This document shows positions 4,058 to 45,756 of a DNA stretch of 64,000 nt, piece by piece. The position numbers and the translations under genes are program-made. The notes below the pieces were generated by a model that was not told the DNA's origin, did not search any database, and saw only the letters and a list, made by a program, of their open reading frames with translations. The first letter of the stretch is position 1; each line of letters opens with the position of its first letter. The DNA lies in IMG/VR virus record IMGVR_UViG_3300022213_000237, positions 105,568 through 169,567 of that record. One strand, written 5' to 3'. This DNA comes from a virus.

Positions 4058-6694
4058 TTACTTCATCATGGTCATCACCAGATTTGGCTCAATTATTTTC
4101 CCGTTGTAAGAGCTGTCCGGCTTGAGGTAGTTTTCAATAGGGCCTTCAATAGTATCTTCGCCCATGTATCCGGTATTGGGCAACAATCCATCTAAATCCT
4201 CACCGTGTGTGAGGCCGTGCTTAAAGTTAGTACGAGAAACAATAGCTCTACCAACCTCAGCACTCCTACTTTTGGCCACATACAAAGTGATTCTCTTGTT
4301 TACTTGGGCCACAGGTGACCGATTAAGAGTGATTACGTTGCTGGCTGCCGTCATCGGACCCCAAGCCTCAAGAACGTCTTCCATTCTAAGCAAGCGATGT
4401 GTGGTGTCACCGCGATTAACCTTAGAACCTTCGCGATTGGTTTGAATAGCCAATAGGGCGTGGAAATCGCACTCGAGTGCCAGCTGGACGTAGTGCTCGT
4501 ATACGATTTCGATGATGGAACGCATAGCAAGCGCGCCTTTACCAGCTAAAGCTTGATTGGTGGTCAATTTAGCTGGATAGTCGGAAACCAGGAGATCAAA
4601 TCCTTTACCGGTTCGGGCTTTGCGTTCGTCCTGGACGCGACGAATTATGGGCATTATTTCCTCGACCGCCATTCCCGCTTTATTATATGGAATGTAGACG
4701 CAATTTTTCGCGATAATGTTCGCGACATGGTTCAGTAATTGAACCCCCTCAGGGGTTTTATAAAGGCGGAAAAGATCTTCTTCGGACCCCTTCAGACACG
4801 CCTTTAAGAGTTTGTTGCGAATATCGTGAGGGCGGCCTTCATGCGTCATCAATAGCACGCTATTGCCGTTCATAATGTTGTGACGAGCAACTGTAAGAAG
4901 GAAGGTGGTGTTGTGTGTAACCGTTAAATCGCCGAGCAAACAAAGACGGTCGCCATCAAGCGTAAATCCATAATAGTCGCCCTCACCGCAAGGCTCAACT
5001 CTAAATCCAGATGTATCGCACGGTTTACTGCCATCTTTGGCGCGTTTACGTTCTAATCTGACGGGAATTTCGGATAAAGCTCCGCTTAGACTCAGCGATA
5101 CATACTGACCCTCGGTTCCGTTTTGATCGGATTTTGTAATAAGCCTCTCTCCAACTTTAAGACCTAAGCTTCGGGCCAAGAAGGCGATGTCTGCTGCCAG
5201 ACGTTTGGATTTTTGGGTAATTTCTATCACTTTATCTCCTGCCCATCCGTCAGTATCTACGATTCCAGCCAACAACTCTAAACGTTGTTGACGAGATCCA
5301 GTAAGATATAAATGAGGGATATGTTTACATCCTAAAAGGTCTAGGCCTCTGAGACTAGAATGGGCGGTGCCTGACCCGATCGCCCGTATCAACCAAGCTC
5401 TATTGTGTGAATTGCCCACTACAGAGATGCCGTGACCACAGGACCTGATCCATGATTCCCACGTTAACGCCAATTCGTCATCCATAGTGGTTAGCACGGC
5501 GCCGGACGAATGCCCATCACCCAACCACATCCCCAGAACGTAAGCCGGAATCGGCTGATTTTGCTGCTGGAAATCTAACCCAACCCTCCAGAGCTTCATT
5601 CTGTTTTTCCAGTTGTTGGATTTCTCTAAATATTCATTAAGAGGAATGTTAACAATATCCCCCTTCCATAAGCATGGCTCTCCGTTCCCGCTAGTTGACG
5701 AATATCTGCCCCTTTGCCTTTCTTTGGGTTCATCGTCTGCACTACATTTTAAGCTTAAGATGTGGACATCGTTACAGATCCACGGATTGCCCCCAGTTTT
5801 GGGGATAATCTTAAATAATGGACCATGTCCTTTGGTGGTGGACAACACTTTGCGAGGTGCCCCATCCGGGCCCATCAATAAATCCCCCGACTTAATGTCC
5901 TCTACAGGAACTCTATGTCCCGAAAACATCAGTATTTCTGTACCTTTACCCCAGCATTTCCCAACGTTAGATGGAGCGAGAACAACAGTGGTGTCACCGC
6001 GTTGCAGTCCACCAGTCGTCTTAATAATACGACCTGTACCGGGCAGACCTTTAGCTTTTTCATCCGCATTTTGTTCCCGCTCGACGGCGCCATCGAGCAA
6101 TGCCTCATCAAGCAAAGGCAGTCCCGTCGACAGAGCCGCTTTCACGTCGTCGTACTTCTGCTGTAAATAGACTTCTGGATTGAGAAACGAAACCTCACGA
6201 CCTTCTTCGAAAGAAGCGACACCAAATTGCTTAACCGCGTCTTCCATGACGGCAGCGACTTCGCTCCATCGTTGGCGATTCCAGAGGTTTGAGGTCTTGA
6301 GAATGGCGTTCTGTAAAACTTTCGATTGTAGCCACGCAGTCAACTCCAATCTGATTTTATCCCATCTGATATCGGCTGTACGCTGCAGAGCGATATTCAG
6401 ACGCGCAGTGAGTCTTTGAGCGGTATCGCTACCCTCGATCACCCACTCCCTGGAGCCGGTCAACTCGCTCTGGGTTGGTGGTCTTCCAAGTGGGTGACTT
6501 ATGGACTGGATTATTTTGTATAATTTTTCGTCATACGGATTCACGAACCAGTCCGGCTGAACCCTGTGCCCCACCTGCATGAAGATCTTTGGGTCTTGAA
6601 TGAGGTGGCCGATGAAGGCCGACTGGTAGGCGTCGCTTAGCGGTAGGGTAGCGCTTACAGGTATTTCCACTTTAAGGGTTTCAACTGACGACAT
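4058..6694 (-). CDS. DnaB-type replicative DNA helicase interrupted by an intein
   Basis: The precursor is about 878 residues; removal of the 349-residue intein leaves a helicase of about 529. The N-terminal part resembles the DnaB N-domain (LPLSDAYQSAFIGHLIQD, FMQVGHRVQPDWF). The C-terminal part is a RecA-fold ATPase whose Walker A loop is split: APSNVGK precedes the intein and TTFLLTVARH follows. Further motifs include VLLMTHEGR, LLVSDYP (Walker B region), the arginine-rich EVGRAIVSR segment and a C-terminal NLVMTMMK tail. It would be the hexameric fork helicase working with the primase at 8848. The ATG at 6694 was chosen because AAGGAC lies just upstream; an in-frame GTG at 6736 lacks a good ribosome site. 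It is the first gene leftward of the 6695-7008 divergent region. Confidence 0.87.
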   Translation of the reverse strand: MSSVETLKVEIPVSATLPLSDAYQSAFIGHLIQDPKIFMQVGHRVQPDWFVNPYDEKLYKIIQSISHPLGRPPTQSELTGSREWVIEGSDTAQRLTARLNIALQRTADIRWDKIRLELTAWLQSKVLQNAILKTSNLWNRQRWSEVAAVMEDAVKQFGVASFEEGREVSFLNPEVYLQQKYDDVKAALSTGLPLLDEALLDGAVEREQNADEKAKGLPGTGRIIKTTGGLQRGDTTVVLAPSNVGKCWGKGTEILMFSGHRVPVEDIKSGDLLMGPDGAPRKVLSTTKGHGPLFKIIPKTGGNPWICNDVHILSLKCSADDEPKERQRGRYSSTSGNGEPCLWKGDIVNIPLNEYLEKSNNWKNRMKLWRVGLDFQQQNQPIPAYVLGMWLGDGHSSGAVLTTMDDELALTWESWIRSCGHGISVVGNSHNRAWLIRAIGSGTAHSSLRGLDLLGCKHIPHLYLTGSRQQRLELLAGIVDTDGWAGDKVIEITQKSKRLAADIAFLARSLGLKVGERLITKSDQNGTEGQYVSLSLSGALSEIPVRLERKRAKDGSKPCDTSGFRVEPCGEGDYYGFTLDGDRLCLLGDLTVTHNTTFLLTVARHNIMNGNSVLLMTHEGRPHDIRNKLLKACLKGSEEDLFRLYKTPEGVQLLNHVANIIAKNCVYIPYNKAGMAVEEIMPIIRRVQDERKARTGKGFDLLVSDYPAKLTTNQALAGKGALAMRSIIEIVYEHYVQLALECDFHALLAIQTNREGSKVNRGDTTHRLLRMEDVLEAWGPMTAASNVITLNRSPVAQVNKRITLYVAKSRSAEVGRAIVSRTNFKHGLTHGEDLDGLLPNTGYMGEDTIEGPIENYLKPDSSYNGKIIEPNLVMTMMK
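4910..5956 (-). mobile_element. Intein with LAGLIDADG endonuclease in the helicase P-loop
   Basis: This in-frame 349-codon insertion begins with Cys (codon at 5954-5956) directly after the Walker A lysine and ends with the dipeptide His-Asn before Thr. Block A reads CWGKGTEILMFSGHRVPVED, block B includes the NDVHILSL segment, and the end is LLGDLTVTHN. Two LAGLIDADG-type motifs are visible, YVLGMWLGDGH and LLAGIVDTDGW, so the homing endonuclease looks intact. It is a class 1 cis-splicing intein at a common helicase insertion point, the nucleotide-binding loop, where the host protein is inactive until splicing. Ligated exteins would restore SNVGK-TTFLL. Confidence 0.93.
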
Positions 6695-7008
6695 GTATGT
6701 CCTTAGTCCTTTATCGGGGATACCGACATATACCACCCCGATCTTTTCGATCTTTTCGATAATATTAAAGCCAAGTTAGCTCGTTGAGGAAGATCACACG
6801 CTACCTGTTCAAACAGATGGCGTCTTCGCTTCTAACAGATAGCTGCTCGATCGTGTGCGCTTCAGTGCTCTATCTCCTTCCTAAAGTGTTTGACACCGAC
6901 AGAATATCGTGTCATTATGTCACAGCAACTCAATCCAGCTTTATTTCTCGTCGCACCTGAACACATACAGCCATTAACACTGAACAAACGAGCAGTTTGG
7001 AGACCATT
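6695..7008. promoter_or_regulatory. Divergent intergenic region between the leftward helicase operon and the rightward zinc-finger gene
   Basis: About 310 bases without a convincing gene separate two divergent units. It holds a rightward sigma70-like promoter at 6890-6918, an AT-rich stretch near 6757-6772 that could serve as a leftward -10 region (TAATATTAT on the minus strand), a CGATCTTTT direct repeat near 6740-6765, and two copies of AACAGAT near 6811-6840. The last two may be operator-like. A 66-codon minus-strand open frame at 6862-7062 covers part of it but has no support. Confidence 0.5.
6890..6918 (+). promoter_or_regulatory. Sigma70-like promoter for the 7009 gene
   Basis: A perfect -35 hexamer TTGACA at 6890-6895 is followed after 17 bases by CATTAT at 6913-6918 (four of six matches to the -10 consensus). 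It lies about 90 bases before the TTG start at 7009 and points rightward, so host RNA polymerase could read it early in infection. Confidence 0.55.
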
Positions 7009-8619: not shown

Positions 8620-8626
8620 AGACAAT

Positions 8627-13694: not shown

Positions 13695-15788
13695 TTACTC
13701 CTGGGAGGTTTCTTCCGGCTCTTCTGAGAGTGGGGGTGCAACTACTAATATCGCGTCGATCGCAAAAGGTCTGTTGGATTTGTATCGCGTGAGATGCAGT
13801 ATCGCGATCGACCCAGCCATATCCTTAGGAGCTTCGAGATGTCCTGATTCTCGATCCGGCCACTTAACGAATAAGAATTGTTCACCATCTACGTCAAAAA
13901 TTACTTCTACGGCAGATTTAGTTCCACCCTTGTAGCTGAATCGTCTTTCGGAAATGATATATCCAGCTACCGTGCAGGCAACATGCTGGCCATCATAAAT
14001 CTCAAATTCTTCGTTATAGTATCTAAGCTGTGCGCCATCAACCAGCGGCACGGCTTCAAGTTTACGGTCGCTGCCGATACCCATCTGACGCTTCATGTCC
14101 GCAATACTTTCTGCAGTACTGGGCAGATACCAATAGTTGCCTTTACCGTCGCTAGTGACACCGTCGATCCGCATATCAACCAAAATAGGCACCACGCTGT
14201 TGGTGTAAATTGGCAAAATGTTTTTCTGCATCTGGAATCTAGTCAACGGATTTAAGTCCACGTACTTTTTATCGACTTTACCTTTTTTAGCTTTCTTTCC
14301 TGTAAGGGCCTGAGTTACATTCGCCACTTCTTGTTCGTAATAATCAAGTTTGTCGTTAACGTGTCTCAATTCTGACGGGAAAAGGCTGTCCATAACGCCA
14401 GAAACAATTAGCTTGCCGACTACGCCTCTATTTAGGGCGCTGAGTCCGGCTTTAACTTTTTGCTTACCTTTGGCGTCAAGCATTGGAGTACCGTCTTCGT
14501 TTACTCGCAATGTGGCTCCAGCCATCTTTTTGCGGACTATTTTTTCAACAAAATCGGTGACGCTTAAATATGGGCGACCAGCGCAAAGTTCGGCATGAGC
14601 TGTGGGACCAACGCCGTTAATAAAGCTCAAAGGCGCTCGGATTCTATCGCCCTGGATTTCAAATTCGTCGCCCGAATACCGCACATCCGGTAAGTCGATC
14701 CACTGTTTGCAATAACGCCAAAACTTTTCAGCAATTTCCTTCTTGTCGGCGTTTTTTAGCACCGCACACCACCACTCGTTGGGGTAGTAATGTTTTAGAT
14801 AGGCGCAAGCATAGGCGGTGACGGAATAGCAGATTGAGTGACTTTTGTTAAAGCCGTATTGTCCAAAGGTGACTATCTGGTTCCAGACCTTCTCCGAGTC
14901 TTCTTTACCGATTTTCTCGGAAGCTTTGGCAATAAAGTTTGGATACGCTTCCAATACCTTAGCCATCTTCTTCTTCGCAATGTTAGTGCGAAAGGTATTG
15001 GCTTCTATGCCAGTGCAACCAGTCAAATGCTGATACAACTTCTGTAATTGTTCTTGGTATACAATTACGCCGTAAGTCTCTGGAAGCAGTGCGTCTAGTG
15101 CTTTAATTGGATCGGATGGAGGAAGGCCTTTAGCTCTGTTGGCGTATTCAACCAACATATTATGTTCTCGGCCAGTAATCGGGTCCTTGACCTTAGCATC
15201 CAGAGGACCTGGGCGATCTAGAGCCGTGAAGGCGCTTATTGCTTCAATCGAGTCAATAGCTTTCACACCCGCCGATTTGTCGTAGTTAAATTGAGTCAAC
15301 CATTGTTTGGCGGAGTTGGTATTGAGCTGGAATACGGTTTCTGTTTTACCTTCGGCAATGTCGTTGAATACGGCTTGGTCTTCGGGAAGGTCCCAAATAT
15401 CCATTGGCACACCAGTCGTGGGATTGGGTACGATACGAAATCCTGGAACTCGGCGACCATTAAGTTTGATATCGGATTCAAAGTCTCGGTCTGGGTATTT
15501 TGCTTGAATGAGCTTAATTGCGGCACCGATGTCCTTCAGGGAATTGAGCCCGAGGAAATCCATTTTCAAACCACCTACGGCCTCAACACTCCCCGCCGTG
15601 TATTGGGTGGTACGAAATCCGCTGATAGTGGTCGTGGGTATGAAATTACTGATGGGCTCATTTGCGATGACAAAGCCGCAATTATGCATTACAACGCCAG
15701 AGGCGTGAACGAAACTATGGTGTTCGTGATTAACAGATAAATCATATACCTGTTCTGGTTCTTTTATTCGTGCTGATATTATCTTCAT
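13695..15788 (-). CDS. dnaE: DNA polymerase III alpha subunit, C-terminal half with split-intein C-fragment
   Basis: The 697-residue product begins with a 36-residue IntC (MKIISARIKEPEQ to GVVMHN) followed by Cys and the C-extein. The extein continues the polymerase: GFVIANEP completes the HAxG motif, KMDFLGL supplies the third catalytic aspartate, TFGQYGFNKSHSICYS is the conserved finger motif, and HYYPNEWWCAVL follows. The C-terminal 250 residues hold a helix-hairpin and OB-type region. It starts in an ATGA overlap with the HNH gene stop, so the two are coupled. After trans-splicing with the product of 16447-18621 it should give a polymerase of about 1,292 residues. It cannot be a working polymerase alone because two catalytic aspartates are on the other gene. 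Confidence 0.9.
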   Translation of the reverse strand: MKIISARIKEPEQVYDLSVNHEHHSFVHASGVVMHNCGFVIANEPISNFIPTTTISGFRTTQYTAGSVEAVGGLKMDFLGLNSLKDIGAAIKLIQAKYPDRDFESDIKLNGRRVPGFRIVPNPTTGVPMDIWDLPEDQAVFNDIAEGKTETVFQLNTNSAKQWLTQFNYDKSAGVKAIDSIEAISAFTALDRPGPLDAKVKDPITGREHNMLVEYANRAKGLPPSDPIKALDALLPETYGVIVYQEQLQKLYQHLTGCTGIEANTFRTNIAKKKMAKVLEAYPNFIAKASEKIGKEDSEKVWNQIVTFGQYGFNKSHSICYSVTAYACAYLKHYYPNEWWCAVLKNADKKEIAEKFWRYCKQWIDLPDVRYSGDEFEIQGDRIRAPLSFINGVGPTAHAELCAGRPYLSVTDFVEKIVRKKMAGATLRVNEDGTPMLDAKGKQKVKAGLSALNRGVVGKLIVSGVMDSLFPSELRHVNDKLDYYEQEVANVTQALTGKKAKKGKVDKKYVDLNPLTRFQMQKNILPIYTNSVVPILVDMRIDGVTSDGKGNYWYLPSTAESIADMKRQMGIGSDRKLEAVPLVDGAQLRYYNEEFEIYDGQHVACTVAGYIISERRFSYKGGTKSAVEVIFDVDGEQFLFVKWPDRESGHLEAPKDMAGSIAILHLTRYKSNRPFAIDAILVVAPPLSEEPEETSQE
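15681..15788 (-). mobile_element. Split intein C-terminal fragment (IntC) of DnaE
   Basis: These 36 codons contain block F (VYDLSVNHEHHSFVHASG) and block G (GVVMHN followed by Cys), in the same size range as the Npu and Ssp DnaE IntC fragments. The terminal Asn and +1 Cys needed for splicing are present. It pairs with the IntN at 16450-16728. Confidence 0.9.
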
Positions 15789-16558
15789 GGATCTATCTTA
15801 CTAAGTAGCTTTCCGATCTCCAACATCACTTCGTACGATACATATCTTCCACGCATCCAATTACAGCGTAAACAAGACGGTACACAGTTTTTCTTAATGT
15901 GACCTATGTCATTGTTTTTACGATCCAGACCGGTAGCAGGTCTTCCGCAATAACAACAAGGAGAACTGCGAGCCTCTAACACGTCATCCACGGTAAGATC
16001 AAAATCCCTTCTTTTGTCTTTATCTCTTCTAACGTAAGAGTGAAGAAGTTTTTTAGCTGCCCGAAGAGTGTTTTGAATTGGGGAGTCTTTAAATCTAGTA
16101 GACTTTACACATTCTTTACACCAATAATTCTGTAGACGTATCACTGACCAACGCTGTTTCCAGCGATGGCCTACAGCGCATTCCCAAGTCGAATGGCATG
16201 AAGCTTTGTCGGACCATTCAATCAACTTACCTCCCTTGAGCTTAACGTATTCGATTGCCTCCTTTTTTAGTGGGCGTTGGCGACGAGAACAAATCCTACA
16301 TGGATTACGCGGCGGTTCAACCGAACGATAACTTCCTAATATTGTACTTCCACATTGGATATGGGTAAGTTTCAGGTTAGGTTCTGAAACCCCCTTGTAG
16401 TCTCCAGGATTTTCTACTCGATACCCCCATGAAAACAACTGAGATTCTATGAATTCTTTACTGTGCTTGGTTCTACCAGATCCACGCCTAGCTCGAATGC
16501 CTTTTGAATTCCCATCCACCCCTCTACGGTAAGTATTTGGTGGTCTGGAGTACAACAT
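15785..16558 (-). CDS. HNH endonuclease lying between the two halves of the split DnaE gene
   Basis: The protein has zinc-finger repeats (CGSTIL with CRICSR, CHSTWEC with CKEC) and a C-terminal HNH domain with CCYCGRPATGLDRKNNDIGH and NCVPSCLRCNWMRG, which has the two CxxC pairs, the DR motif and the CN residues of HNH nucleases. The first half recognises DNA and the second cuts. The start is uncertain: ATG 16558 lies within the previous gene in another frame, and GTG 16519 is also possible; the first conserved residues (SKEFIESQLFSWGY) begin about at the end of the IntN gene. The stop overlaps the IntC gene start as ATGA. Position between split-intein halves matches the fractured-gene arrangement known in phage metagenomes, where a free-standing nuclease spreads the locus. 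Confidence 0.82.
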   Translation of the reverse strand: MLYSRPPNTYRRGVDGNSKGIRARRGSGRTKHSKEFIESQLFSWGYRVENPGDYKGVSEPNLKLTHIQCGSTILGSYRSVEPPRNPCRICSRRQRPLKKEAIEYVKLKGGKLIEWSDKASCHSTWECAVGHRWKQRWSVIRLQNYWCKECVKSTRFKDSPIQNTLRAAKKLLHSYVRRDKDKRRDFDLTVDDVLEARSSPCCYCGRPATGLDRKNNDIGHIKKNCVPSCLRCNWMRGRYVSYEVMLEIGKLLSKIDP

Positions 16559-18621
16559 AGCTTTGCTCCATTTTCTAATGTGTATTCCGTTATCGTTCGA
16601 ACCCCCTGATTTATTAAAAGGGCCGTGGCGTTGGCGCCTTGTCCTGTATTTATTATTTGTTCGTTGCATTCGACAATATCCTTTATTTGTCCGTCAGAAA
16701 GTAAGATTGCCTCCCGCGCCGGAAGACAGGCGTGGCGGCTTTTTTGTCGTGCGATACCCAACATTTTCTTAACGATTTCCCATTCTTGTGGGTATCTCTG
16801 AATATACTCCTTAAGCTCCTGAGATTCGTCAATCAAACCTCTTATTTCTTTTCCGTCGTCACCCGTGTACCCAAACACAAAATCGGCATCATCAACACCC
16901 TGAGGCGGCATCGGAAGCTTTTTGCATAAGACTTCAATCTCAGCATCTACGTGGCCATGTAGTGAACGATGAACATCTTTGATAGATGACTTGAGACGTA
17001 GCATCGTATTCGTTGAAATTGCGGCCACGCAATCGGCAAAGCGATTAAACAACCACCCGCGCTCGGGGTCGATAAGGGGGTCTCTATCCGGAAAATCCAT
17101 GTCAATGTCCGGCAGCTTCCCGTCCTCGATACGGTCCTTCGTCAGAAAGCGGTCTTCTGAGAGGTCGTACTTGAGTGGGTCGACGTGAGTGACACCAAGA
17201 TAGTAAACTGCGGATAGGCCGCCTGCGGAGCCACGACCCGCACCGCTAAGTAATCGTTGTTGTTCGTAAAAGGAACAAACTTCTTCGGCAATAAACAAGT
17301 AAGGCAGGAGATCTATTTTGCCGTTGTGATGTAACAGTTCTACTTCTTTCTTTAAACGGGATACGCGTGTCGGATTACCCCAATCCATGCGCCCGTGTTT
17401 GTCGAGCAGGATCTTAAAATACTTAAGAGTATTTGATGGATAGAATGACGCAGGTAAGGATTTGCGATCTGTGAATTTGAAGTCCTTGAAACGCTGACTC
17501 CATTCAATATTTGAGTCTACCATGGATTCGAAGTCGCTCTCCGACATCCCCATCACACCTTTAAAGTAAGACCATGCTTCAGCAGAATCGAACCTGTGAT
17601 ACGAATTTGCGAATTTCCACGAACCACCAGAGCTTCCGAGACGGGAATCCTGGACAATCTTTTCATCTTTGGTGGCGAAATGCGCATCGTCGGAAAGCAA
17701 TATTTTATCGCCACGAGTTCTAGCGAGATGCAACATGAATCGATTGGCGGCCAACTGAACATCGCCATCAGGACACCAAGGCTGGCATTCATTCTTTAGA
17801 AAGTCCTCAACGAGCTTGCACTCGACAATGACTTTGGGTTCGCGTTCCTCCCATTTACGGTTATTCATTACCGCAACCAACAAGCCAACATCCTTACCCC
17901 GTGAAACAGCTTTGGCTAAGTCTTCGGCACTGACGCCATCCGAGAATTTAGTGGTCTTAAGCTTTTTCTCTTTCCAGAACTTAAATTTCTCTCCGCCTTC
18001 AATAGTAACAAAGACACCATTGACCCAGTATTTGTCACAAACATGCGGAAATACTTCAACGTAGAACTTGTTTCCAAACATCGACTTGAGACGTTCGTAG
18101 TATTTAATGGCAATGTCTGGGCGATCCGAAAGCAGGTGGCGTTGCACCATGCCGATTAGACATCCGGAAGTAGCGGTAATGTTGTATTGTGAGAGTCTTT
18201 CTAGATTTTCCCAAGAGAACAACGGCTTCCTTTCGGAGCCGTGCTGCTCTGCGCGAGCATCAGCTAAAGAAAGTTCTTTGACTAACGCCTCGTATCCCTT
18301 TTGGTCTTGGGCGTGAAGCGTAATGTGGTAGTATTTGTTGTAGGAGGCGAAAGTTCCTTTAGCGTCCTTTTCGATACCTGCTGCCTTGAGAATCGGGCAA
18401 TCATCATCTCTAAAATAGCCCTCGACACCCAAAATAGGAATAATGTTGTTCTTTTTGGCAAGGTCGTACACTTCACGACATGCGCCCATAGAACCGTGAT
18501 CAGTACACGTTGTCACTCCCGTACCAAGCTGTATTTCTCTTTCTACAAACGCTTCTGGGGTGGAAGCCGTATCTAATGATTGTTGGTGACAGTGAGGAGT
18601 TGGAAAATTCTTAAAAGCCAT
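16447..18621 (-). CDS. dnaE: DNA polymerase III alpha subunit, N-terminal half with split-intein N-fragment
   Basis: The 724-residue product has an N-terminal PHP domain (PHCHQQS metal histidines, CTDHGSMG, GVEGYF) and the polymerase palm with LPDIDMDFPDRD, whose catalytic aspartates are at about residues 505 and 507. The GAGRGSAGGLS motif precedes it. N-extein ends GIARQKSRHA at residue 631; the remaining 93 residues are IntN. The site is the conserved HAxG motif of DnaE, unlike the CFN site of the cyanobacterial DnaE split intein. The gene ends in TAG at 16447, well short of a full DnaE, which is explained by the split. It is the replicative polymerase after trans-splicing with 13695-15788. 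Confidence 0.92.
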   Translation of the reverse strand: MAFKNFPTPHCHQQSLDTASTPEAFVEREIQLGTGVTTCTDHGSMGACREVYDLAKKNNIIPILGVEGYFRDDDCPILKAAGIEKDAKGTFASYNKYYHITLHAQDQKGYEALVKELSLADARAEQHGSERKPLFSWENLERLSQYNITATSGCLIGMVQRHLLSDRPDIAIKYYERLKSMFGNKFYVEVFPHVCDKYWVNGVFVTIEGGEKFKFWKEKKLKTTKFSDGVSAEDLAKAVSRGKDVGLLVAVMNNRKWEEREPKVIVECKLVEDFLKNECQPWCPDGDVQLAANRFMLHLARTRGDKILLSDDAHFATKDEKIVQDSRLGSSGGSWKFANSYHRFDSAEAWSYFKGVMGMSESDFESMVDSNIEWSQRFKDFKFTDRKSLPASFYPSNTLKYFKILLDKHGRMDWGNPTRVSRLKKEVELLHHNGKIDLLPYLFIAEEVCSFYEQQRLLSGAGRGSAGGLSAVYYLGVTHVDPLKYDLSEDRFLTKDRIEDGKLPDIDMDFPDRDPLIDPERGWLFNRFADCVAAISTNTMLRLKSSIKDVHRSLHGHVDAEIEVLCKKLPMPPQGVDDADFVFGYTGDDGKEIRGLIDESQELKEYIQRYPQEWEIVKKMLGIARQKSRHACLPAREAILLSDGQIKDIVECNEQIINTGQGANATALLINQGVRTITEYTLENGAKLCCTPDHQILTVEGWMGIQKAFELGVDLVEPSTVKNS
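16450..16728 (-). mobile_element. Split intein N-terminal fragment (IntN) of DnaE
   Basis: This 93-codon fragment starts at Cys (codon 16726-16728) with CLPAREAILLSDGQIKDI (block A) and carries CCTPDHQILTVEGWM (block B with the TxxH motif) and ELGVDLVEPS, close in order and length to the Npu/Ssp DnaE IntN. It has no endonuclease, as usual for split inteins; that function is on the neighbouring HNH gene. Confidence 0.9.
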
Positions 18622-36856: not shown

Positions 36857-37461
36857 TTAAGCGCCCAGAAGACAATCTGACGAAAATAGAGCAGGAAGAG
36901 CTTACTAAGTATCGACGCAGTGATGGCTACGCGCCTTTAGCTGCGTCTACAGCCGTGCGGCTATATCAGTTGTTCTTGTTGGGCCACTCGTGTGAGGAGA
37001 TTGTACGTACAAATGATAACCGTTTTCCGTTGGGTATGGTGGTCGATGCTCGCATTCGTCATGACTGGGATCGTCGTCGCACTGAGTATATCGATAGGCT
37101 GTATGAAGAGGCTGGAAGTATGGTGCGACAACGTCAAGTGGAAAGCGCTATGTTTCTTGGGGATATGCTTGCTGCGGCGCATGCAGAGTATGGCCCCAAA
37201 TTCCAAAAGTTCATTCAATCAAGAGACCCGAAAGACCTGCCCCCAGAATTTAAAATAGATACTCCCACAAAATACAAGATGGTTATCGACGGCCTCATGA
37301 AGATAACTGGTCAAGACAAGAAAGATGCAGCCGGCGCAGCCGTCCAGGTTATCGGCAACAATGTTATGTTGCAGGAAAGCGGATCTAAAACCGTTACTTC
37401 TCAAGAAGGGTTTGACATTCTTAAGCAGCTAGAACGTCTTGATAGTGAAAAGGTGAAGTAA
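36832..37461 (+). CDS. Putative terminase small subunit
   Basis: The 209-residue protein lies directly upstream of the large terminase and ends in a TAATG overlap with it. The segment STAVRLYQLFLLGHSCEEIVRTNDNRFPLGMVVDARIRHDWDRRR resembles a helix-turn-helix DNA-recognition unit as in small terminases, followed by a helical oligomerisation region. No catalytic residues are expected. The call depends on position and HTH pattern. Confidence 0.65.
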   Translation: MAEEDKEIIKRPEDNLTKIEQEELTKYRRSDGYAPLAASTAVRLYQLFLLGHSCEEIVRTNDNRFPLGMVVDARIRHDWDRRRTEYIDRLYEEAGSMVRQRQVESAMFLGDMLAAAHAEYGPKFQKFIQSRDPKDLPPEFKIDTPTKYKMVIDGLMKITGQDKKDAAGAAVQVIGNNVMLQESGSKTVTSQEGFDILKQLERLDSEKVK

Positions 37462-40400
37462 TGGACAAGCTACCGAAATTAACTCCGGCGCAGCTAGAAT
37501 TTTTGGCTGCCAATAGAGAGCAACTTGAGCGCCGGGCGCTCTTTGCCGTCTGTATATCCAAAGAACATCTGCATGCCTGGATTAAGCGGTATCTGAAAAT
37601 CGATCTGCCGGACACAATTGTCTGCGACGATGACGTAACGACGCCTGCTTCTAACAGCACCCCCATGGACCTTGTGTGGGAAATTTATCAAAAGGCTTTA
37701 CAGGGCGATGACGAGAAGTTTCAGCGCGTACTTGCTTACGCCGCGCGGGACAGCTTTAAAACACTATCCGCTTCGGTTCTAGAAATCCTTTGTTTGTTTC
37801 ATCTTCGGCGCGACGTTGCCCACATGGCTGCCATTGAAGCCCAGGCCCAAAAGGCTGCTTCGTATGTCTCTAAGTATTTGAATTTTCCTTATTTGCGAGA
37901 CTTTGTATCAGGAAACAATAAACGTGAAATACGTATTACACGTTACGAAGATTCTCGAGGAAACATCCTTACCCCAAGAGAGTTCGAAGAACTAGAGCCT
38001 AGAGATCAGCGCAAATACGAGCCTATTTCTCATTACATGAAGATCGTCATTGCGACCCTTAGCGGTGCGAATTGTGTAGACCCTACTACTTTTATTCGTC
38101 TAGCCAATGGAGAGGATGTTCTTGCTGTAGATATTAAGTCTGGTGATGAAATTTTAAATTTTGATCTTAAAAATCACACTTGGACGACTTCTAAGGTTGG
38201 AAGTGTTGTGTCATCTATTAAAGCTGCTATGAAGGTTTCTTTGGATGACGGCTCCTATGTGGTTGTGTCCGAAGACCATCCAGTTTTGACTACTCGAGGA
38301 TGGATTCGCGCCAGAGCTTTGCGGCTTACTGACAAGGTTCTTCCTCCTCCAATTTCCAGTACAACTCAGGTAATTAAACCACCTATTTTGGCTGACGGCG
38401 TTACCTTGGAATCGTTTAGCGTCGATCAGTTAATTTTGGGTTCTGTTCTTGGTGATTCTAGTTTGACGTGGCCCAAAAATTCATCTGGAGATAATTACGG
38501 TTCGGGGCCCCGTTTTCAAGTTTATCATTGCGCGGCCCAACTTCCTTATCTTTATCACAAGAAGGAGATCTTGGAGAATGCTGGCATTAAGTGTAGCGTA
38601 TATATGGATCCACGTGGTGGTGGAAAATTAATGACTGGAGTTTTACCTCAATACGCTGACTATTATCGGATGATGTATCCTGAGAATAAGAAGCAGGTAA
38701 CCAAGGAATGGTTGTCTAAACTTACCGACGAAGGACTGGCTTATTGGTTAATGGATGACGGCTCCGGTTCTCCTCAGAAATTGGGGTCCAGAAAAGATAA
38801 ACACATTTCAATAGCTACCTGTGGTTTTAGTTTACAGGAACATCAATTAATAGTTGATTTGTTTTTAGCAAAAGGACTGAATCCCAAAATTGGGACAGTA
38901 ACAAACCAAAGCTCCAAAACTTGGAATGTGATTGAATTTGATCTTGATTCTTCTAGAGAGTTATCGTCCCGTCTCGATAAATGGATCCATCCTGTATTGA
39001 AATATAAGTTCCCCACACCATTTCAGCTTCTAGATACCAGGTGTATTGAGACTGGAGCACCAATACAGAGATCTTCTGGTCTTGGATTCAGTAGAATTAC
39101 CCGCACTCCTAAGGTCTCTGAAAGAGAAAGATGGTCTGCTTTTAGAGATATGTTTACTCGAAGTATTCAACAATTAGAATTCTTGGGCAAACGAGTAATG
39201 ATGGATATTTCTGTCGATACAGACGATGAGATGAAACGTAACTTCGTAGCTAACTCCTCGTTATTATTACATAATTCCGAGCATGTGAGTTTTATGGTTC
39301 TCGACGAACTCGACTTAGCTCCAGCTGGCCCGGTTGAAGAAGCAAAAATGATTCCCGCCCCAGGTCAGGTTCGCGGTGAACTTCCCATCACGTTCATGAC
39401 GTCGACGCGCAAGTTTGCCATCGGACTTGTTCAGCAAGAAATAGATAAAGCTCAAAAGGACAGCGATTACCATTTACAGATTCGTCATTGGAATATCATC
39501 GACGTGACGAAGCGCTGTGAACCTAAACGCCATCTGCCCGAAGAACCCAAAATTCCTATATATTATTCGGAGCACAGCCTACGGGCAATCAGTGAACCAG
39601 AGTACAACCTTCTTTCCACTGAAGAGAAGACCAAGTTCCTAAAGCAAGAAGGCTACGCTGGTTGTTTACGTAATTGTTCTTTGTTTGCTGTCTGCAAGGG
39701 GCGATTAGCTACTAAACAAAAGGTAACTGACGACAATGTTAAGCCTAGGCCGATGTTAAAGCCTATTCCTCACGTCCTCACTCAATTCAAATCAGTCAAT
39801 CCAGACCACGCTAAAGCGCAATTGATGTGCTGGAAACCTTCTTCGGAAGGACTCATATATCCCTTTTTTAATTACTCTCGTCACATGATTGATGCCGCCG
39901 AGATGTATGAAAAAATAACTGGTGAGGAAATTCCTAAAGACCAATTAAATAATTTTACCAAGGCTGACCTAATCAAGGTTCTGCAAGAACGTGAAGTCGA
40001 ATTCTATACAGGCATGGACTGGGGTTATACTCACAATTGGGCAGCTGTAACCGGGGCTAAGGTTGGTCACCGATTCTTTGTCTTTGACGTCATTGCGGTT
40101 GCTGAGCTGGAAGTCATGCAGAAGATAGAGATGTACAAAAATAAGTTGGGGTTCCTGGACGCCACTGTATTTGCTGACCCCGAAGATCGCTCTAGCATAG
40201 AGACCTTCCGAAAAAATGGTGTTCGCATGCGAAAATGGAAGAAGGGTAGCGTAATTGGTGGTATCGATGCCGTACGTACTAAACTAATGCCCGGTCTTAA
40301 TAAAGAACCGGAACTGTATTTCCTGGCTAACGATGAAGGTTGTGAGTTACTGGCGGATCGTATTGCCAAGTATGCCTGGGTTCTCGACGCTACCCAGAAA

Positions 40401-40721
40401 CCTACCGATGTTCCTAGTGATTTTGAAGATGATGAATGCGACGCCCTCAGATACGTGATTGTGAATTTGTTTGGTAATCGTAGCAATATGGTGGCGGCAA
40501 TTGGTCCCGTGGCTCCCGGCGTTCAGTACGACCCTTCCTTTCCGGCGCCACGAGATGGAATGGGAATACCTCCTGGTATTTCCGTGTATCAAAACGAGAC
40601 TATTCTTGAATCTACTACTGAAAATTGGATGGATCGTAAAATTCAAGAACTTACCGGCAACCACGAAGATCCCAACGTCCCGAAATCCGGACGTAAAGGT
40701 TCTTTCAGCTTTGATTTTTGA
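37461..40721 (+). CDS. Terminase large subunit interrupted by an intein
   Basis: The precursor is 1,086 residues; the mature protein without intein has about 685. ATPase part: deviant Walker A YAARDSFKTLSAS around residues 93-104, and Walker B VSFMVLDELDLAP right after the intein. Nuclease part (RNase H fold): TGMDWGYTHNWAAV with first Asp, FADPEDRSS and the final DDECDALRYVI. It packages phage DNA into proheads, cutting concatemers. The intein sits between Walker A and B, just before the Walker B strand, at SGAN|SEH. It follows the small subunit, with the portal two genes later, the standard order. Confidence 0.92.
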   Translation: MDKLPKLTPAQLEFLAANREQLERRALFAVCISKEHLHAWIKRYLKIDLPDTIVCDDDVTTPASNSTPMDLVWEIYQKALQGDDEKFQRVLAYAARDSFKTLSASVLEILCLFHLRRDVAHMAAIEAQAQKAASYVSKYLNFPYLRDFVSGNNKREIRITRYEDSRGNILTPREFEELEPRDQRKYEPISHYMKIVIATLSGANCVDPTTFIRLANGEDVLAVDIKSGDEILNFDLKNHTWTTSKVGSVVSSIKAAMKVSLDDGSYVVVSEDHPVLTTRGWIRARALRLTDKVLPPPISSTTQVIKPPILADGVTLESFSVDQLILGSVLGDSSLTWPKNSSGDNYGSGPRFQVYHCAAQLPYLYHKKEILENAGIKCSVYMDPRGGGKLMTGVLPQYADYYRMMYPENKKQVTKEWLSKLTDEGLAYWLMDDGSGSPQKLGSRKDKHISIATCGFSLQEHQLIVDLFLAKGLNPKIGTVTNQSSKTWNVIEFDLDSSRELSSRLDKWIHPVLKYKFPTPFQLLDTRCIETGAPIQRSSGLGFSRITRTPKVSERERWSAFRDMFTRSIQQLEFLGKRVMMDISVDTDDEMKRNFVANSSLLLHNSEHVSFMVLDELDLAPAGPVEEAKMIPAPGQVRGELPITFMTSTRKFAIGLVQQEIDKAQKDSDYHLQIRHWNIIDVTKRCEPKRHLPEEPKIPIYYSEHSLRAISEPEYNLLSTEEKTKFLKQEGYAGCLRNCSLFAVCKGRLATKQKVTDDNVKPRPMLKPIPHVLTQFKSVNPDHAKAQLMCWKPSSEGLIYPFFNYSRHMIDAAEMYEKITGEEIPKDQLNNFTKADLIKVLQEREVEFYTGMDWGYTHNWAAVTGAKVGHRFFVFDVIAVAELEVMQKIEMYKNKLGFLDATVFADPEDRSSIETFRKNGVRMRKWKKGSVIGGIDAVRTKLMPGLNKEPELYFLANDEGCELLADRIAKYAWVLDATQKPTDVPSDFEDDECDALRYVIVNLFGNRSNMVAAIGPVAPGVQYDPSFPAPRDGMGIPPGISVYQNETILESTTENWMDRKIQELTGNHEDPNVPKSGRKGSFSFDF
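38073..39275 (+). mobile_element. Intein with LAGLIDADG-type endonuclease in terminase large subunit
   Basis: A 401-codon insertion begins with Cys (CVDPTTFIRLANGEDVLAVD, block A), has VSEDHPVLTTRGWIRA (block B), and ends SLLLHN before Ser. LILGSVLGDSSL and LAYWLMDDGSGS are the two LAGLIDADG-like motifs, the second of the type found in WLMDDGS endonucleases. Ligation of SGAN to SEHVSFMVLDELD restores the terminase. Codon use here is AT-richer than the flanking gene, consistent with separate origin. Confidence 0.92.
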
Positions 40722-41733: not shown

Positions 41734-41737
41734 AAAT

Positions 41738-43756
41738 ATGGCCGAAAACAAATCACCTCCAGGACCATTGCAGGCCGTCGTCGATGCTAAGGTACAGCGC
41801 TCCGGTGGGCGTATCAAATTCTCTCTTCATGATATCGATGAAGAAGGGAAGCTCCGCAAGTCCAAGGAAGAAGAAAATCCGTTGGCGGGTACCAAGCTTC
41901 AAAAAAGTTTCGTCAATTACACCGAAGACGTTAAGCGTGGGAAGGAAGTTAATCGTCTATCTTTTGAGGTAGACCCGACACACGCAAATTATTATCAGTC
42001 GTTGTGGATGCCTAAGTGGGGGCAACTTCCTGACCATGTCTTAAAACAAGTCTCCCTAAAAGATTCGTTGGTCGCCTCGATACTCACCATGCGCTCAAGC
42101 CAGATGTCTGCGTTTGGACGCGAATTGCAAGATCGCTTTGCTTCTGGTTATCGTATTGAGCCTCGGCCAGGTGTGATGGAAGATGCGTCCAATGAGCAAA
42201 AGGAGCTGCTCCAGAAGAGAATTGAAGATGCCAGTAAGTTGATTTCTACTTGCGGCTCTATCGAGGGGGTTCGTTTTGATGAGCGCATGTCTCTTTCTAC
42301 CTTTTTGTCGCTGCAAACCCGCAACGCTCTAGTTTTTGGTCGTTTTGCCACAGAAATTATATACACCCGAGATCCAGACGGAACTCGTAAATTTCACAGC
42401 TACCGGCCTGTCGATGCTGGGACCATTTACCAAGCGGCACCACGTCAAGATCATCTCAATCAAGTACGTAAAGAGGCTCTGCACCTACTTCAGCAGCTAA
42501 AAGGGCCAGATGCAGAAAAATTGAGTGCAGAAAAGTTTGAAAACGACGAATACGCCTGGGTGCAGGTGCTGGATGGCAAGCCTCGGCAAGCCTACACACC
42601 GGAAGAGATGGTCGTTCATAACATGTTTCCGTTAACGGATATTGAGTTGCGGGGTTATCCGATTAGTCCGATTGAAACCGTAATCGATGGCATCGCCACC
42701 CATATGAACATTGTACAGCACAATAAACTGTACTTTCAAAGTGGTCGAGCTGCCCGTGGTATGGTCGTCATTAAGTCACCGGACGTAGACCAGGGACTTG
42801 TGGCGCAAATACGTCAACATTTTAACGCGTCTATTAATTCTGTTTCTAACGCTTGGCGTGTACCTGTTTTTGGTGTTGACCCCGAAGATAGCGTCGAATG
42901 GGCACCCTTTGATATGTCCTCGGGCCGTGACATGGAGTTTCAATACCTATCTGACCAAAACGCGCGGGAAATTTGTTCTGCGTTCTTGATTTCGCCAGAA
43001 GAGCTACCCGGCTATCAGCACCTTAGTCGCGGCACTAACTCTCAGGCGCTTAGCGAAAGCTCTAATGAGTATAAGCTTGAGGCTGCTCGAGATGTCGGTA
43101 TCCGGCCTCTACTTAATCATTTCCAAGATTTCTTAAATGATCACATTTTACCTCTTATCGACCCCGCAGTTGCGCAGCTGTGCTCGCTAAAGCTCTACGG
43201 TCTCGATGCTGATACCGAAGAGAAAGAAGATACAGGTCTCACCAATCGTATGCAGATTGACCTGACCATGGACGAAATCCTTGAGCGTAAGGAAAAAGAT
43301 CCAGTTGGGAAAGAGTGGGGAGGGAAGTTTCTCTTCAATCCTGCTTGGCAGTCGGTGCTAGATAAGTATTTTAAGGTTTCGGACATCAAAAAACATTTCT
43401 TTGGGTTACAGCCCACAGAAGACGATGAATATGTAAGAGACCCCTTTTGGTTCAATTACCAACAGCTGAAGATGCAGGCAGAGCAAATGGAGCAACAAGC
43501 TCAGGCGCAACAACAGCAAGCTCAAGCCGAGAGCGGTGGTGAAGTCCAGGACGAAAGCCAAGAACAGGATTCTCAATTAGCTCAAAGCGCAGACAAAGCC
43601 ATTGATTTGATGAGCAAGAGCGAGAAACAACTGCCTCCCGGTAAACGGCGTTTGTTACATCTACACAAGAAAATCGTGAAAGACGCCATGGCGGAATGGG
43701 AAAAAGACAGTAAAGAAGCCTTGGCTGCGGTCGTGCAAGCCGTGAAGGACGAATAA
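41738..43756 (+). CDS. Portal protein
   Basis: The 672-residue protein has typical portal features: LKQVSLKDSLVASILTMRSSQ near residue 100, an internal RNALVFGRFATEIIYTRDPDGT stem segment, EEMVVHNMFPLTDIELRGYPISPIE, AREICSAFLISPEELPG (the clip region) and ESSNEYKLEAARDVGIRPLLNHFQDFLNDHIL, the long helix. A C-terminal Gln-rich part EQMEQQAQAQQQQAQAES ends it. It forms the 12-mer DNA gate at the capsid vertex and anchors terminase. It overlaps the following MuF-like gene as ATAATG. Confidence 0.9.
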   Translation: MAENKSPPGPLQAVVDAKVQRSGGRIKFSLHDIDEEGKLRKSKEEENPLAGTKLQKSFVNYTEDVKRGKEVNRLSFEVDPTHANYYQSLWMPKWGQLPDHVLKQVSLKDSLVASILTMRSSQMSAFGRELQDRFASGYRIEPRPGVMEDASNEQKELLQKRIEDASKLISTCGSIEGVRFDERMSLSTFLSLQTRNALVFGRFATEIIYTRDPDGTRKFHSYRPVDAGTIYQAAPRQDHLNQVRKEALHLLQQLKGPDAEKLSAEKFENDEYAWVQVLDGKPRQAYTPEEMVVHNMFPLTDIELRGYPISPIETVIDGIATHMNIVQHNKLYFQSGRAARGMVVIKSPDVDQGLVAQIRQHFNASINSVSNAWRVPVFGVDPEDSVEWAPFDMSSGRDMEFQYLSDQNAREICSAFLISPEELPGYQHLSRGTNSQALSESSNEYKLEAARDVGIRPLLNHFQDFLNDHILPLIDPAVAQLCSLKLYGLDADTEEKEDTGLTNRMQIDLTMDEILERKEKDPVGKEWGGKFLFNPAWQSVLDKYFKVSDIKKHFFGLQPTEDDEYVRDPFWFNYQQLKMQAEQMEQQAQAQQQQAQAESGGEVQDESQEQDSQLAQSADKAIDLMSKSEKQLPPGKRRLLHLHKKIVKDAMAEWEKDSKEALAAVVQAVKDE

Positions 43757-45756
43757 TGGCTAAGATCAAGCGCCTGTCTAAAAAGACGATGACTAAAATA
43801 GCCGACGCCGTCGACGCCCTCTTCGACAAAATGAAGGTGCGGCTTCTCGGCCCTCGTATGGTGGATAAGAAACTATTTATCACCTACAATCGCGAGAAAT
43901 CGTTACCCGGTCTCTACGAGCAGGCGCATATCGAAGAGAAAGGTATTCCAGACAAGGAACATCTTGATCAATTGGTGCGTACCACTGAAAATTACTTAGA
44001 AGCAGTGCGTCATCGAGCGAAGGCTAAGACCGTGGTCGCGGTACAGTCATTTATGGCCGAAAATCCTGACGCTAATGTAACCGACGTCCTGGGTGGCGAA
44101 CTTGCTGATATTTATGGTCAGGTTAAGCACGAGGTACGTAGGATTGCGGATACCGAAGCCCAGCATTTTCGCAATGTTGGTGTGATGGACGGTATTGTAA
44201 GAGTTAGCGCCGCCCACGGCATAAGTGATCCGATAGTGTATTTTGTTACAGTCAGAGACCAATACAGATGCGAGGAATGTACCCGACTCCATTTGCTTGA
44301 AGACGGCATCACTCCACGTGTCTGGAAATTGTCCGAATTAGGACATGGATATCATCAAAAAGGTGATGAAAATCCAAAGGTTGGGGGACTACACCCACAT
44401 TGTAGGTGCGTGTGGGATGGAAACGCACCTGTAATTACAGAGTCTGGTATCAAACCACTTAAATCTGTAGAGATAGGCGACCGGGTATTGACTCATACTG
44501 GTAAGTTTAAGAAAGTTATTGGTACTTTTTCTAAAGATGGTCTACTGCCGGAGAAAACGGACGACGTATACCGAATAGAATTCAGGTCCCCGCTGGGAAA
44601 AATACACAAGCTGCGTGTTACCAACGATCACTTAATGTTAACTCAGCGTGGTTGGGTGAGGGCCGAGGCCCTGGTCCCCGGTAAAGATACATTAGAATAT
44701 CTATTCGCTTCTTGTGAGACATGCAAAAAAGCATTTCCTCATAATATTCAAAAGCCTCGAAAAAGATTCTGCTCTTATAAGTGTTCTATTTCTGACAAAA
44801 TAGGTAAACCAAGTCCTACTCTTGGCAGGAAAGCTACACCAGAAGAAAAAGAGTTGAGATTAAAATCCATTAAAGCACTTTACGAAAAGAAGCACAAAAC
44901 AACATTCCCCCAAAAGACTGTTAATTGTAACGGGTGCGGAAACGAGTTTACAGTTGAAACTGGGTATAGGGATAAGTCTGGACATTGGGTGTCTCGTAAG
45001 AATTATAAGCTCGAGTATTGCTCTCGATCGTGTATTTCTAAGGCCATAGCTCTCAAACAATGGTCAAGTGCTGAACATAGACTTGCTGTTTCGGAAGCTA
45101 ATCGAAAATCTATGTTAGAACAATATCGTACTGGCAGACGCAACCCTTTAGGTATTAAAGAAGCCAGGCAAGCTCTTTACGGTTTGGGTCGAGGCGGAAG
45201 TAAAGACGAGAAACGTTTGTATCAAACAATTAAAAGCTCTTACTTAGACGCCGAATCCAACTATTCGATAGGAAGATATTTTGCTGATGTTGCTATTCCA
45301 TCTATTAAGACAGTTGTAGAGTGGGACGGTGGTGGTCACTGGCTTGATGTATATAAAGGCAAAAAGACTATGGAAGAAAAGATAGCTGAAGACGCAACTC
45401 GTGATGAGTTTATGAGAAGTTTGGGGTGGCACGTTCTCAGATATACAGAAGAAACAGGGTTTAGCACAATATTCGAAGATATCCGGAGGGTGGCTCAAAA
45501 TTCTACTGGTCAATACTCATTCAGGCCTGTTGAAATTGTCAAAGTAGTTAGAATTCCAGCCAGCAAAGCCTCCCCTGGAAGGAGATTATATGATATAACT
45601 GTAGAGGATGATTCTTCTTTTGTTGTTATGGGTATTGTTTCTCATAATTGTTCTATGACCACACTTCTTCCCGGATTCGGATTTGATAGTGCCGGTATGG
45701 TTGCGTGGAAGGGTGAACATCACGACGAGTTTGAGCGCCAGCGTGCAGGGCTTTAA
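43756..45756 (+). CDS. MuF-like head morphogenesis protein interrupted by an intein
   Basis: The precursor is 666 residues; the mature form is about 252. The extein has the MuF C-terminal pattern DQYRCEECTRLHLLEDG, LHPHCRC then SMTTLLPGFGF (C-x-C near the end), and an N-terminal helical part. MuF proteins are minor capsid components injected or used in head assembly. The intein is inserted between HCR and CSMT; after splicing the HPHCRC motif is complete. It follows the portal, the usual order. The extein call is firm, the exact role less so. Confidence 0.85.
   Translation: MAKIKRLSKKTMTKIADAVDALFDKMKVRLLGPRMVDKKLFITYNREKSLPGLYEQAHIEEKGIPDKEHLDQLVRTTENYLEAVRHRAKAKTVVAVQSFMAENPDANVTDVLGGELADIYGQVKHEVRRIADTEAQHFRNVGVMDGIVRVSAAHGISDPIVYFVTVRDQYRCEECTRLHLLEDGITPRVWKLSELGHGYHQKGDENPKVGGLHPHCRCVWDGNAPVITESGIKPLKSVEIGDRVLTHTGKFKKVIGTFSKDGLLPEKTDDVYRIEFRSPLGKIHKLRVTNDHLMLTQRGWVRAEALVPGKDTLEYLFASCETCKKAFPHNIQKPRKRFCSYKCSISDKIGKPSPTLGRKATPEEKELRLKSIKALYEKKHKTTFPQKTVNCNGCGNEFTVETGYRDKSGHWVSRKNYKLEYCSRSCISKAIALKQWSSAEHRLAVSEANRKSMLEQYRTGRRNPLGIKEARQALYGLGRGGSKDEKRLYQTIKSSYLDAESNYSIGRYFADVAIPSIKTVVEWDGGGHWLDVYKGKKTMEEKIAEDATRDEFMRSLGWHVLRYTEETGFSTIFEDIRRVAQNSTGQYSFRPVEIVKVVRIPASKASPGRRLYDITVEDDSSFVVMGIVSHNCSMTTLLPGFGFDSAGMVAWKGEHHDEFERQRAGL
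44407..45648 (+). mobile_element. Intein with zinc-finger and Vsr/PD-(D/E)XK-type nuclease in MuF-like protein
   Basis: This 414-codon insertion starts at Cys (CVWDGNAPVITESGIKPL), has NDHLMLTQRGWVRA (block B) and ends DITVEDDSSFVVMGIVSHN before Cys. The nuclease part has no LAGLIDADG. Instead it holds a cysteine pair CETC and FCSYKCS, a GKPSPTLGRKATPEEKELRL segment like the NUMOD3 DNA-binding motif, another zinc-like pair CNGCGNEF and YCSRSCIS, then DVAIPSIKTVVEWDGGGHW and RDEFMRSLGWHVLRYTEE, which match Vsr/DUF559-type PD-(D/E)XK nucleases. Such nucleases are uncommon inside inteins. Confidence 0.85.

What the first reader, a model, noticed from the sequence alone, without database searches (positions are those of the whole stretch)
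4058..45756. Five protein-splicing elements in one phage, all in essential genes
DnaB, DnaE (split), GroEL, TerL and MuF each carry an intein; types differ (class 1 LAGLIDADG, split, class 3-like, Vsr-type), so the load came from several independent invasions rather than one expansion. Each insertion lies in or near a catalytic motif. Two free-standing endonucleases (HNH at 15785, Hef-like at 55089) add to the load.
Basis: partly seen in the sequence, partly recalled or inferred. Interest (0 to 1): 0.7.

Follow-up and report, generated by a model that had tools for sequence, protein, structure and literature searches.

The report
Five independent inteins in Mx1-like myxophage
A phage related to Myxococcus phage Mx1 has five self-splicing protein inserts (inteins) in five core genes that are all uninterrupted in Mx1; each insert has its nearest kin at the same spot in other phages, so they arrived separately, and one of them sits in a phage GroEL chaperonin, an intein host for which I found no published description.

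Summary
DnaB, DnaE, GroEL, TerL and MuF each carry an intein, and HMM searches found no sixth in the 169.6-kb record. In the collinear Myxococcus phage Mx1 (OR576727.2) all five sites are empty to the residue, and its genome has no detectable intein. In a tree of 62 splicing domains the five fall in five places; holding them together is rejected (AU p = 7e-66). Each groups with same-site or same-motif inteins of other phages. They carry four nuclease kinds: LAGLIDADG_3 (DnaB and GroEL, separate clades), LAGLIDADG_2 (TerL), DUF559 (MuF) and an HNH gene (DnaE). GroEL's is a class 3 intein (Trp/Cys/Thr signature, Pro1) of a phage family at GDG|TTT, better conserved than its host. DnaE is a fractured gene: split halves flank an HNH gene read out of frame; a second phage repeats this. 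Corrections: that HNH belongs to the DnaE cassette; MuF's site is a conserved Cys/His motif, not a known catalytic one; essentiality, splicing and homing are untested. Five is not a ceiling: another phage contig shows at least seven. The kind is known; GroEL as host, the out-of-frame HNH and the clade's many intein sites are new as far as I could find.

The parts
4910..5956 (-). DnaB intein (349 aa), class 1 type, Cys1...HN|T, LAGLIDADG; in the Walker A loop APSNVGK|TT
   Evidence: same-site intein in G001/L203
4058..6736 (-). DnaB-like replicative helicase ORF (N- and C-exteins around the intein)
16447..16728 (-). IntN (93 aa) of the split DnaE intein, fused to DnaE N-half; site RHA|C
15681..15788 (-). 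IntC (36 aa) of the split DnaE intein, fused to DnaE C-half; ends MHN|C
15785..16558 (-). HNH (endonuclease VII-like) ORF between the split halves, in the -1 frame relative to IntN; candidate starts ATG 16558 (GGAG 7 bases upstream) or GTG 16519; stop overlaps the IntC start (ATGA)
   Evidence: homologue in the same place and frame in G002/L194
16729..18621 (-). DnaE N-extein (PHP domain and N part of the polymerase)
13695..15680 (-). DnaE C-extein
29144..30133 (-). GroEL intein (330 aa), class 3 signature (Pro1, W66, C310, T+1), LAGLIDADG; site GDG|TTT in the ATP-binding loop
27674..30520 (-). GroEL ORF with the intein
38073..39275 (+). TerL intein (401 aa), Cys1...HN|S, LAGLIDADG_2; site AN|SEH, just before the Walker B-like VLDELD
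37461..40721 (+). Terminase large subunit ORF with the intein
44407..45648 (+). MuF intein (414 aa), Cys1...HN|C, zinc-finger-like region and DUF559 nuclease domain; site HPHCR|C
43756..45756 (+). MuF-like head morphogenesis ORF with the intein (named from its HPHCRC motif, its place after the portal, and the Gordonia phage MuF matches of the intein)
55089..56849 (+). Free-standing homing endonuclease ORF between major capsid protein and thymidylate synthase; absent at that place in Mx1

Best explanation
The window comes from a near-genome-length record of an Mx1-like phage whose core genes DnaB, DnaE, GroEL, TerL and MuF were each invaded by a different intein lineage. Inferred mechanism: each precursor is translated with its insert; the Hint domain excises itself and joins the exteins (Cys1-initiated for DnaB, TerL and MuF; class 3, initiated by the internal block-F Cys, for GroEL; trans-splicing of two polypeptides for DnaE). 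The associated endonuclease cuts intein-free alleles of the same gene in a coinfecting phage, and repair copies the intein in. The mosaic has accumulated one site at a time by exchange among related and unrelated phages. Shown: presence, boundaries, signatures, empty and filled alleles, separate phylogenetic origins. Inferred: splicing, homing and order of arrival.
For: Empty sites in Mx1, residue-exact, for all five genes, and no intein found in the whole Mx1 genome. Same-site relatives elsewhere: GroEL in about 25 phage contigs, MuF in L021 and L034, TerL in L034, L036, L151, L152, DnaB in G001, DnaE split plus HNH in G002. Tree: five placements; each window row groups with same-site or same-motif rows (support 97-100); one clade rejected, p = 6.65e-66. 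DnaB and GroEL nucleases lie in separate clades, p = 3.1e-5. Lateral spread: GroEL intein 45-59% identical where the GroEL exteins are 26-48%; DnaB intein 53% against extein 42%. Gain/decay stages: full, 247-aa partly deleted, and 139/146-aa endonuclease-less GroEL inteins. Class 3 residues invariant in 12 of 12; model pLDDT 91 matches PI-SceI and class 3 DnaB intein 6bs8.
Against: No splicing or homing assay. TerL and DnaE inteins are no better conserved than their exteins (39 vs 47%; 49-56 vs 56%), so vertical inheritance plus loss in Mx1 is possible for those two. The trees do not tell gain from loss. Deep branches among splicing domains are weakly supported. The HNH gene's translation start is unresolved.
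Confidence: 0.9

Rival explanations
1. One intein entered an ancestor and spread within this genome to four more genes (single expansion).
For: DnaB and GroEL inteins are recognisably related to each other (25% over 280 aa, E = 7e-12).
Against: Five separate tree placements and AU rejection for all five (p = 7e-66) and for the DnaB/GroEL pair (splicing domain p = 6e-6, nuclease p = 3e-5); four different nuclease families; closest kin of each lie in other phages.
Confidence: 0.01
2. The common ancestor of the Mx1-like phages carried most of these inteins, and Mx1 and others lost them by precise deletion.
For: Several inteins are shared at the same site by distant members (TerL, DnaE, DnaB, MuF); TerL and DnaE intein divergence is about the same as extein divergence.
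Against: Most relatives are empty at each site; GroEL and DnaB inteins are better conserved than their hosts; precise loss of all five in Mx1, and of most in the others, is costly.
Confidence: 0.15
3. The inteins are regulatory switches that gate replication, folding and packaging, retained by selection rather than as parasites.
For: They sit in five core genes of the replication-to-packaging pathway; endonuclease-less versions persist at GroEL and MuF in relatives; redox control of a mycobacterial DnaB intein is published (PMC6195587, abstract).
Against: The collinear Mx1 has none, so they are dispensable for this lifestyle; all five have an associated endonuclease domain or gene with recognisable motifs, as expected of mobile parasites.
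Confidence: 0.06
4. The DnaE break and out-of-frame HNH are assembly errors in an ordinary contiguous intein.
For: The HNH reading frame lacks an obvious start right at its conserved part.
Against: A second phage (G002) shows the same split, the same HNH and the same -1 frame relation at 56% extein identity; IntN and IntC have canonical split lengths and align with Npu DnaE.
Confidence: 0.04

Closest known systems
Class 3 phage inteins (e.g. M. smegmatis DnaB, PDB 6bs8; mycobacteriophage inteins, PMC5050341)
   Same: GroEL intein has the W (block B), C (block F), T+1 signature and no Cys/Ser at position 1; the predicted fold matches 6bs8 and the gp41-1 variant 6riz (C1A, F65W, D107C).
   Different: Host is GroEL, not a P-loop NTPase; begins with Pro-Gln-Pro; forms its own clade next to PhoH/helicase class 3 inteins. 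No published GroEL intein found in the held library.
Fractured genes with split inteins and an endonuclease gene between the halves (Dassa et al. 2009, NAR, cited in PMC3653736; contents from memory)
   Same: DnaE: IntN and IntC on separate ORFs with a free-standing endonuclease gene between them.
   Different: Nuclease is HNH/endonuclease VII-like rather than the Vsr-like family; read in the -1 frame overlapping IntN; site RHA|C in DnaE differs from the cyanobacterial DnaE site.
Cyanobacterial split DnaE inteins (Npu DnaE, PDB 4kl5/2keq)
   Same: Best PDB match of the DnaE split intein (E = 6.5e-9) with a similar split point and a 36-aa IntC.
   Different: Inserted hundreds of residues away, at RHA|CGF; relatives carry other inteins at FNK|SHS, a few residues from the cyanobacterial site (cyanobacterial site from memory).
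Out-of-frame HNH insertion in actinophage methylase (ShiLan domain, PMC11855218)
   Same: HNH read in a frame other than the host gene, with a GTG as possible start.
   Different: There no intein domains; here the HNH lies between intein halves.
Intein/intron-rich crAss-like Zeta phages (PMC7886860)
   Same: Heavy load of self-splicing elements in core phage genes.
   Different: Reported maximum 3 inteins (plus 14 introns) per genome; here 5 inteins, and introns were not looked for.
Phage P-loop helicase inteins (e.g. Klebsiella phage JD001 type)
   Same: DnaB intein is about 40-45% identical and sits at the same GK|T motif.
   Different: Host helicase family differs (exteins 22-29% identical over short stretches only).

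Membership tests
Intein (all five) | In-frame insert with splicing blocks, C-terminal Asn followed by Cys/Ser/Thr | tested here: met
   HN|T, HN|C, HN|T, HN|S, HN|C; HMM hits and empty alleles
Intein (all five) | Self-excision and extein ligation | not testable with these tools
   needs expression
Class 1 intein (DnaB, TerL, MuF; DnaE in trans) | Nucleophile (Cys/Ser) at position 1 | tested here: met
   Cys1 in all four
Class 3 intein (GroEL) | No nucleophile at position 1; Trp in block B, Cys in block F, Thr at +1 | tested here: met
   Pro1; W66 and C310 invariant in 12 of 12, T+1 in the aligned loci
Class 3 intein (GroEL) | Hint fold like solved class 3 inteins | tested here: met
   pLDDT 91; Foldseek hits 6bs8, 6riz, PI-SceI
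Split intein / fractured gene (DnaE) | Two ORFs ending in IntN and beginning with IntC at the same extein junction | tested here: met
   repeated in G002
Split intein / fractured gene (DnaE) | Endonuclease gene between the halves | tested here: met
   HNH ORF
Split intein / fractured gene (DnaE) | Endonuclease of the Vsr-like family of Dassa et al. | tested here: not met
   HNH/endonuclease VII-like instead; family definition recalled from memory
LAGLIDADG homing endonuclease (DnaB, GroEL, TerL inteins) | Recognisable LAGLIDADG domain | tested here: met
   PF14528/PF05204 for DnaB above cut-off, GroEL just under cut-off but with a PI-SceI-like fold; PF03161 for TerL, E = 1.8e-21
LAGLIDADG homing endonuclease (DnaB, GroEL, TerL inteins) | Cleaves the empty allele | not testable with these tools
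   needs enzyme assay
DUF559/Vsr-like nuclease (MuF intein) | DUF559 profile match over its cut-off | tested here: met
   PF04480 32.3 bits against 20.6
DUF559/Vsr-like nuclease (MuF intein) | PD-(D/E)XK fold | tested here: inconclusive
   model pLDDT 64, too poor to search

The most novel reading that the evidence does not exclude
Phage GroEL is an unrecognised intein home: one class 3 lineage jumped from P-loop/PhoH sites into the ATP-binding loop (GDG|TTT) of a protein of unrelated fold and now moves among otherwise distant phages; and in this phage chaperonin, replisome and packaging proteins all depend on splicing, so that splicing conditions could gate the whole lytic programme.
Probability: 0.1. 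Interest if true: 0.75.

Novelty: new member of a known kind. Interest (0 to 1): 0.5.

Why it matters
The pair window phage / Mx1 is a natural full-versus-empty comparison: same gene order, five inteins against none. The surrounding clade offers filled, partly deleted, endonuclease-less and empty alleles at many sites in core genes, so gain, homing and decay can be followed gene by gene. GroEL as intein host and a DnaE split intein with an out-of-frame HNH are useful new cases, and the new split intein could serve as an orthogonal protein-ligation tool.

Tried and rejected
Looked for more inteins in the other 105 kb of the record: none by PF14890, TIGR01443, PF05203. Looked for TerL intein relatives with the single protein: none; the three-row alignment found them. 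Looked for the DnaE IntN-HNH-IntC cassette in viral contigs: no hit, probably because the pattern scan is strict; it turned up through the HMM search of G002 instead. Considered the HNH frame an assembly error: rejected after G002. Considered L140 a bacterial GroEL with an intein: rejected, the contig carries terminase and portal genes. MuF structure model too poor to use. Literature searches for a GroEL intein found none in the open-access library, which is not proof of absence.

Full report
WHAT IS THERE. The window is bases 105,568-169,567 of a 169,567-bp virus record. Five genes carry an insert with intein splicing blocks; profile searches hit each and the boundaries are listed in 'parts'. 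Searches of the whole record with three intein families found no others. These models miss some inteins, so this is a lower bound.

EMPTY ALLELES. The nearest described phage is Myxococcus phage Mx1 (OR576727.2, 169,621 bp, Myxococcus host): TerL 69% and GroEL 61% identical in tblastn, with the same gene order around all five genes. After removing each insert, all five proteins align with Mx1 without a break: DnaB 54.5%, DnaE 65.4%, GroEL 61.8%, TerL 68.2%, MuF 62.7%, and the junctions read NVGK|TT, SRHA|C, AGDG|TTTATV, GAN|SEHVSFMVLDELD, HPHCR|CSMTTLLPGFGF in both. DnaE is one ORF of 1289 aa in Mx1. No intein was found anywhere in Mx1. The free-standing endonuclease at 55089-56849 (PHROG homing endonuclease) lies where Mx1 has an 87-bp gap between capsid protein and thymidylate synthase.

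DISTRIBUTION. Relatives from IMG/VR show a patchwork. The window's TerL site is filled in L034 and L036 (and L151, L152) and empty in most; other TerL relatives carry a different intein a few residues further on, inside the Walker B-like motif (L015, L016, L025, L031). The MuF site is filled in L021 and, as a 205-aa intein without nuclease, in L034; L011 carries a different intein two residues upstream. GroEL is filled by 139- and 146-aa endonuclease-less inteins in L035/L099 and L016/L017. DnaB is filled at the same site in G001 (L203) and empty in Mx1 and L120. DnaE RHA|C is filled in G002 (L194) and empty in Mx1, L119, L120 and the others read. Some of these contigs are near-duplicates, and many are fragments. 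Among the long Mx1-like records the counts found are: this record 5, G001 4, G003 3, G002 1; Mx1, G004 and G005 none. Five is not a ceiling for phages: G016, which was reached only through its GroEL intein, has at least seven.

SEPARATE ORIGINS. A maximum-likelihood tree of 62 splicing domains places the five window rows in five places, each inside a group of same-site or same-motif inteins: GroEL with 14 GroEL-site rows (100/100), TerL with TerL-a rows (99/97), MuF with MuF-b rows (100/98), DnaB with phage helicase inteins (100/100); DnaE pairs with the G002 split intein (SH-aLRT 97) in a second tree. Holding the five together is rejected (p = 6.65e-66) and so is holding DnaB with GroEL (p = 6.5e-6). 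The LAGLIDADG domains of DnaB and GroEL lie in separate groups (p = 3.1e-5). The remaining nucleases belong to other families: LAGLIDADG_2, DUF559 and HNH.

MOBILITY. For GroEL the intein is 45-59% identical between phages whose GroEL exteins are 26-48% identical; MuF 57% against 47%; DnaB 53% against 42%. TerL (39 vs 47%) and DnaE (49-56 vs 56%) do not show this, so old residence with losses remains possible there. Different conservation rates of splicing domains and host proteins are a caveat to this comparison.

GroEL. The GroEL insert starts PQPL and has Trp in block B, Cys in block F and Thr at +1; Trp and Cys are invariant in 12 aligned members and Thr follows in the loci read: the class 3 signature. 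The predicted fold (pLDDT 91.4) matches PI-SceI, the class 3 DnaB intein 6bs8 and the gp41-1 variant 6riz. About 25 phage contigs carry it at the same GDG|TTT loop; the one hit in a bacterial assembly with a GroEL context, L140, is itself a phage contig. Its neighbours in the tree are class 3 inteins of PhoH and P-loop helicases (host names of these from the flanking motifs), so this lineage also entered a phosphate-binding loop of an unrelated fold. I found no published GroEL intein in the open-access library.

DnaE. IntN (93 aa) and IntC (36 aa) are on separate ORFs and best match cyanobacterial split DnaE inteins among solved structures (E = 6.5e-9), but the site is a different one. Between them lies an HNH gene in the -1 frame relative to IntN, its stop overlapping the IntC start codon. 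G002 has the same cassette, same relative frame, HNH 46% identical. The only in-frame start at the same place in both is a GTG inside the conserved Gly-Trp codons; the window also has an ATG with a GGAG 7 bases upstream. How HNH is translated is open. A hidden out-of-frame HNH was recently described in an actinophage methylase (PMC11855218).

WHAT IS NOT SHOWN. Splicing, cleavage and homing are inferred from signatures and distribution. Essentiality is inferred from conservation in Mx1. The MuF site is a conserved Cys/His motif of a head protein, not a known catalytic motif. Statements about the host proteins' motifs (Walker A, Walker B, GroEL ATP loop) rest on general knowledge of these families.

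VERDICT. Observation confirmed; independent acquisition strongly supported; the kind of element is known. Interest is moderate: the load is high (a published survey calls the density in crAss-like phages with up to 14 introns and 3 inteins unprecedented, PMC7886860), the Mx1 contrast is clean, and the GroEL and DnaE cases are new as far as I could find.

Noticed in passing
L198 and L199 (G016 = IMGVR_UViG_3300028826_000180, about 133.7-138.0 kb and 153.6-155.5 kb): DnaE of another phage lies in four ORFs joined by three apparent split inteins, with one further contiguous mini-intein in the second piece; the first piece is about 15 kb from the rest. The same contig has inteins in GroEL, a glycosyltransferase, a sugar dehydratase and apparently RecA.
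   Followed up: partly
L187 (G001) and L189 (G003): DnaE of two Mx1-like phages carries a Ser1 intein at FNK|SHS (FNQ|SHA in G003), a few residues from the cyanobacterial split DnaE site.
   Followed up: partly
L193 (G013): IMPDH-like gene broken by an apparent IntN at GIGPG|C with a free-standing nuclease ORF next to it, like the classic fractured-gene arrangement.
   Followed up: no
L185, L195, L186, L191, L188, L192, L190: Further intein sites in Mx1-like relatives: portal, prohead-protease ORF (two sites), a third TerL site, another DnaE site and an adenine methylase.
   Followed up: partly
window 21976-23850 (-): Ribonucleotide reductase matches the class II (B12-dependent) insertion domain, whereas Mx1 has annotated class Ia alpha and beta genes at the same place.
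   Followed up: no
L007:5146-5937 (genome 62146-62937, -): tRNA-His guanylyltransferase (Thg1) homologue in the phage (PF04446, E = 3e-29).
   Followed up: no
L004:14380-15012 and L008:11370-11933: Two more likely free-standing nucleases in the rest of the record: a NUMOD3/I-HmuI-like ORF and an HNH_5 ORF.
   Followed up: no
L060 4001-5002; L096 4001-4741: GroEL inteins with degenerate or partly deleted LAGLIDADG domains, intermediates between full and mini inteins.
   Followed up: partly
window 45967-50055 (+) and 61376-63901 (+): Large multidomain ORFs: one with a PI3/PI4-kinase-like match (counterpart of the Mx1 'prohead protease'), one with NUDIX and acetyltransferase domains.
   Followed up: no
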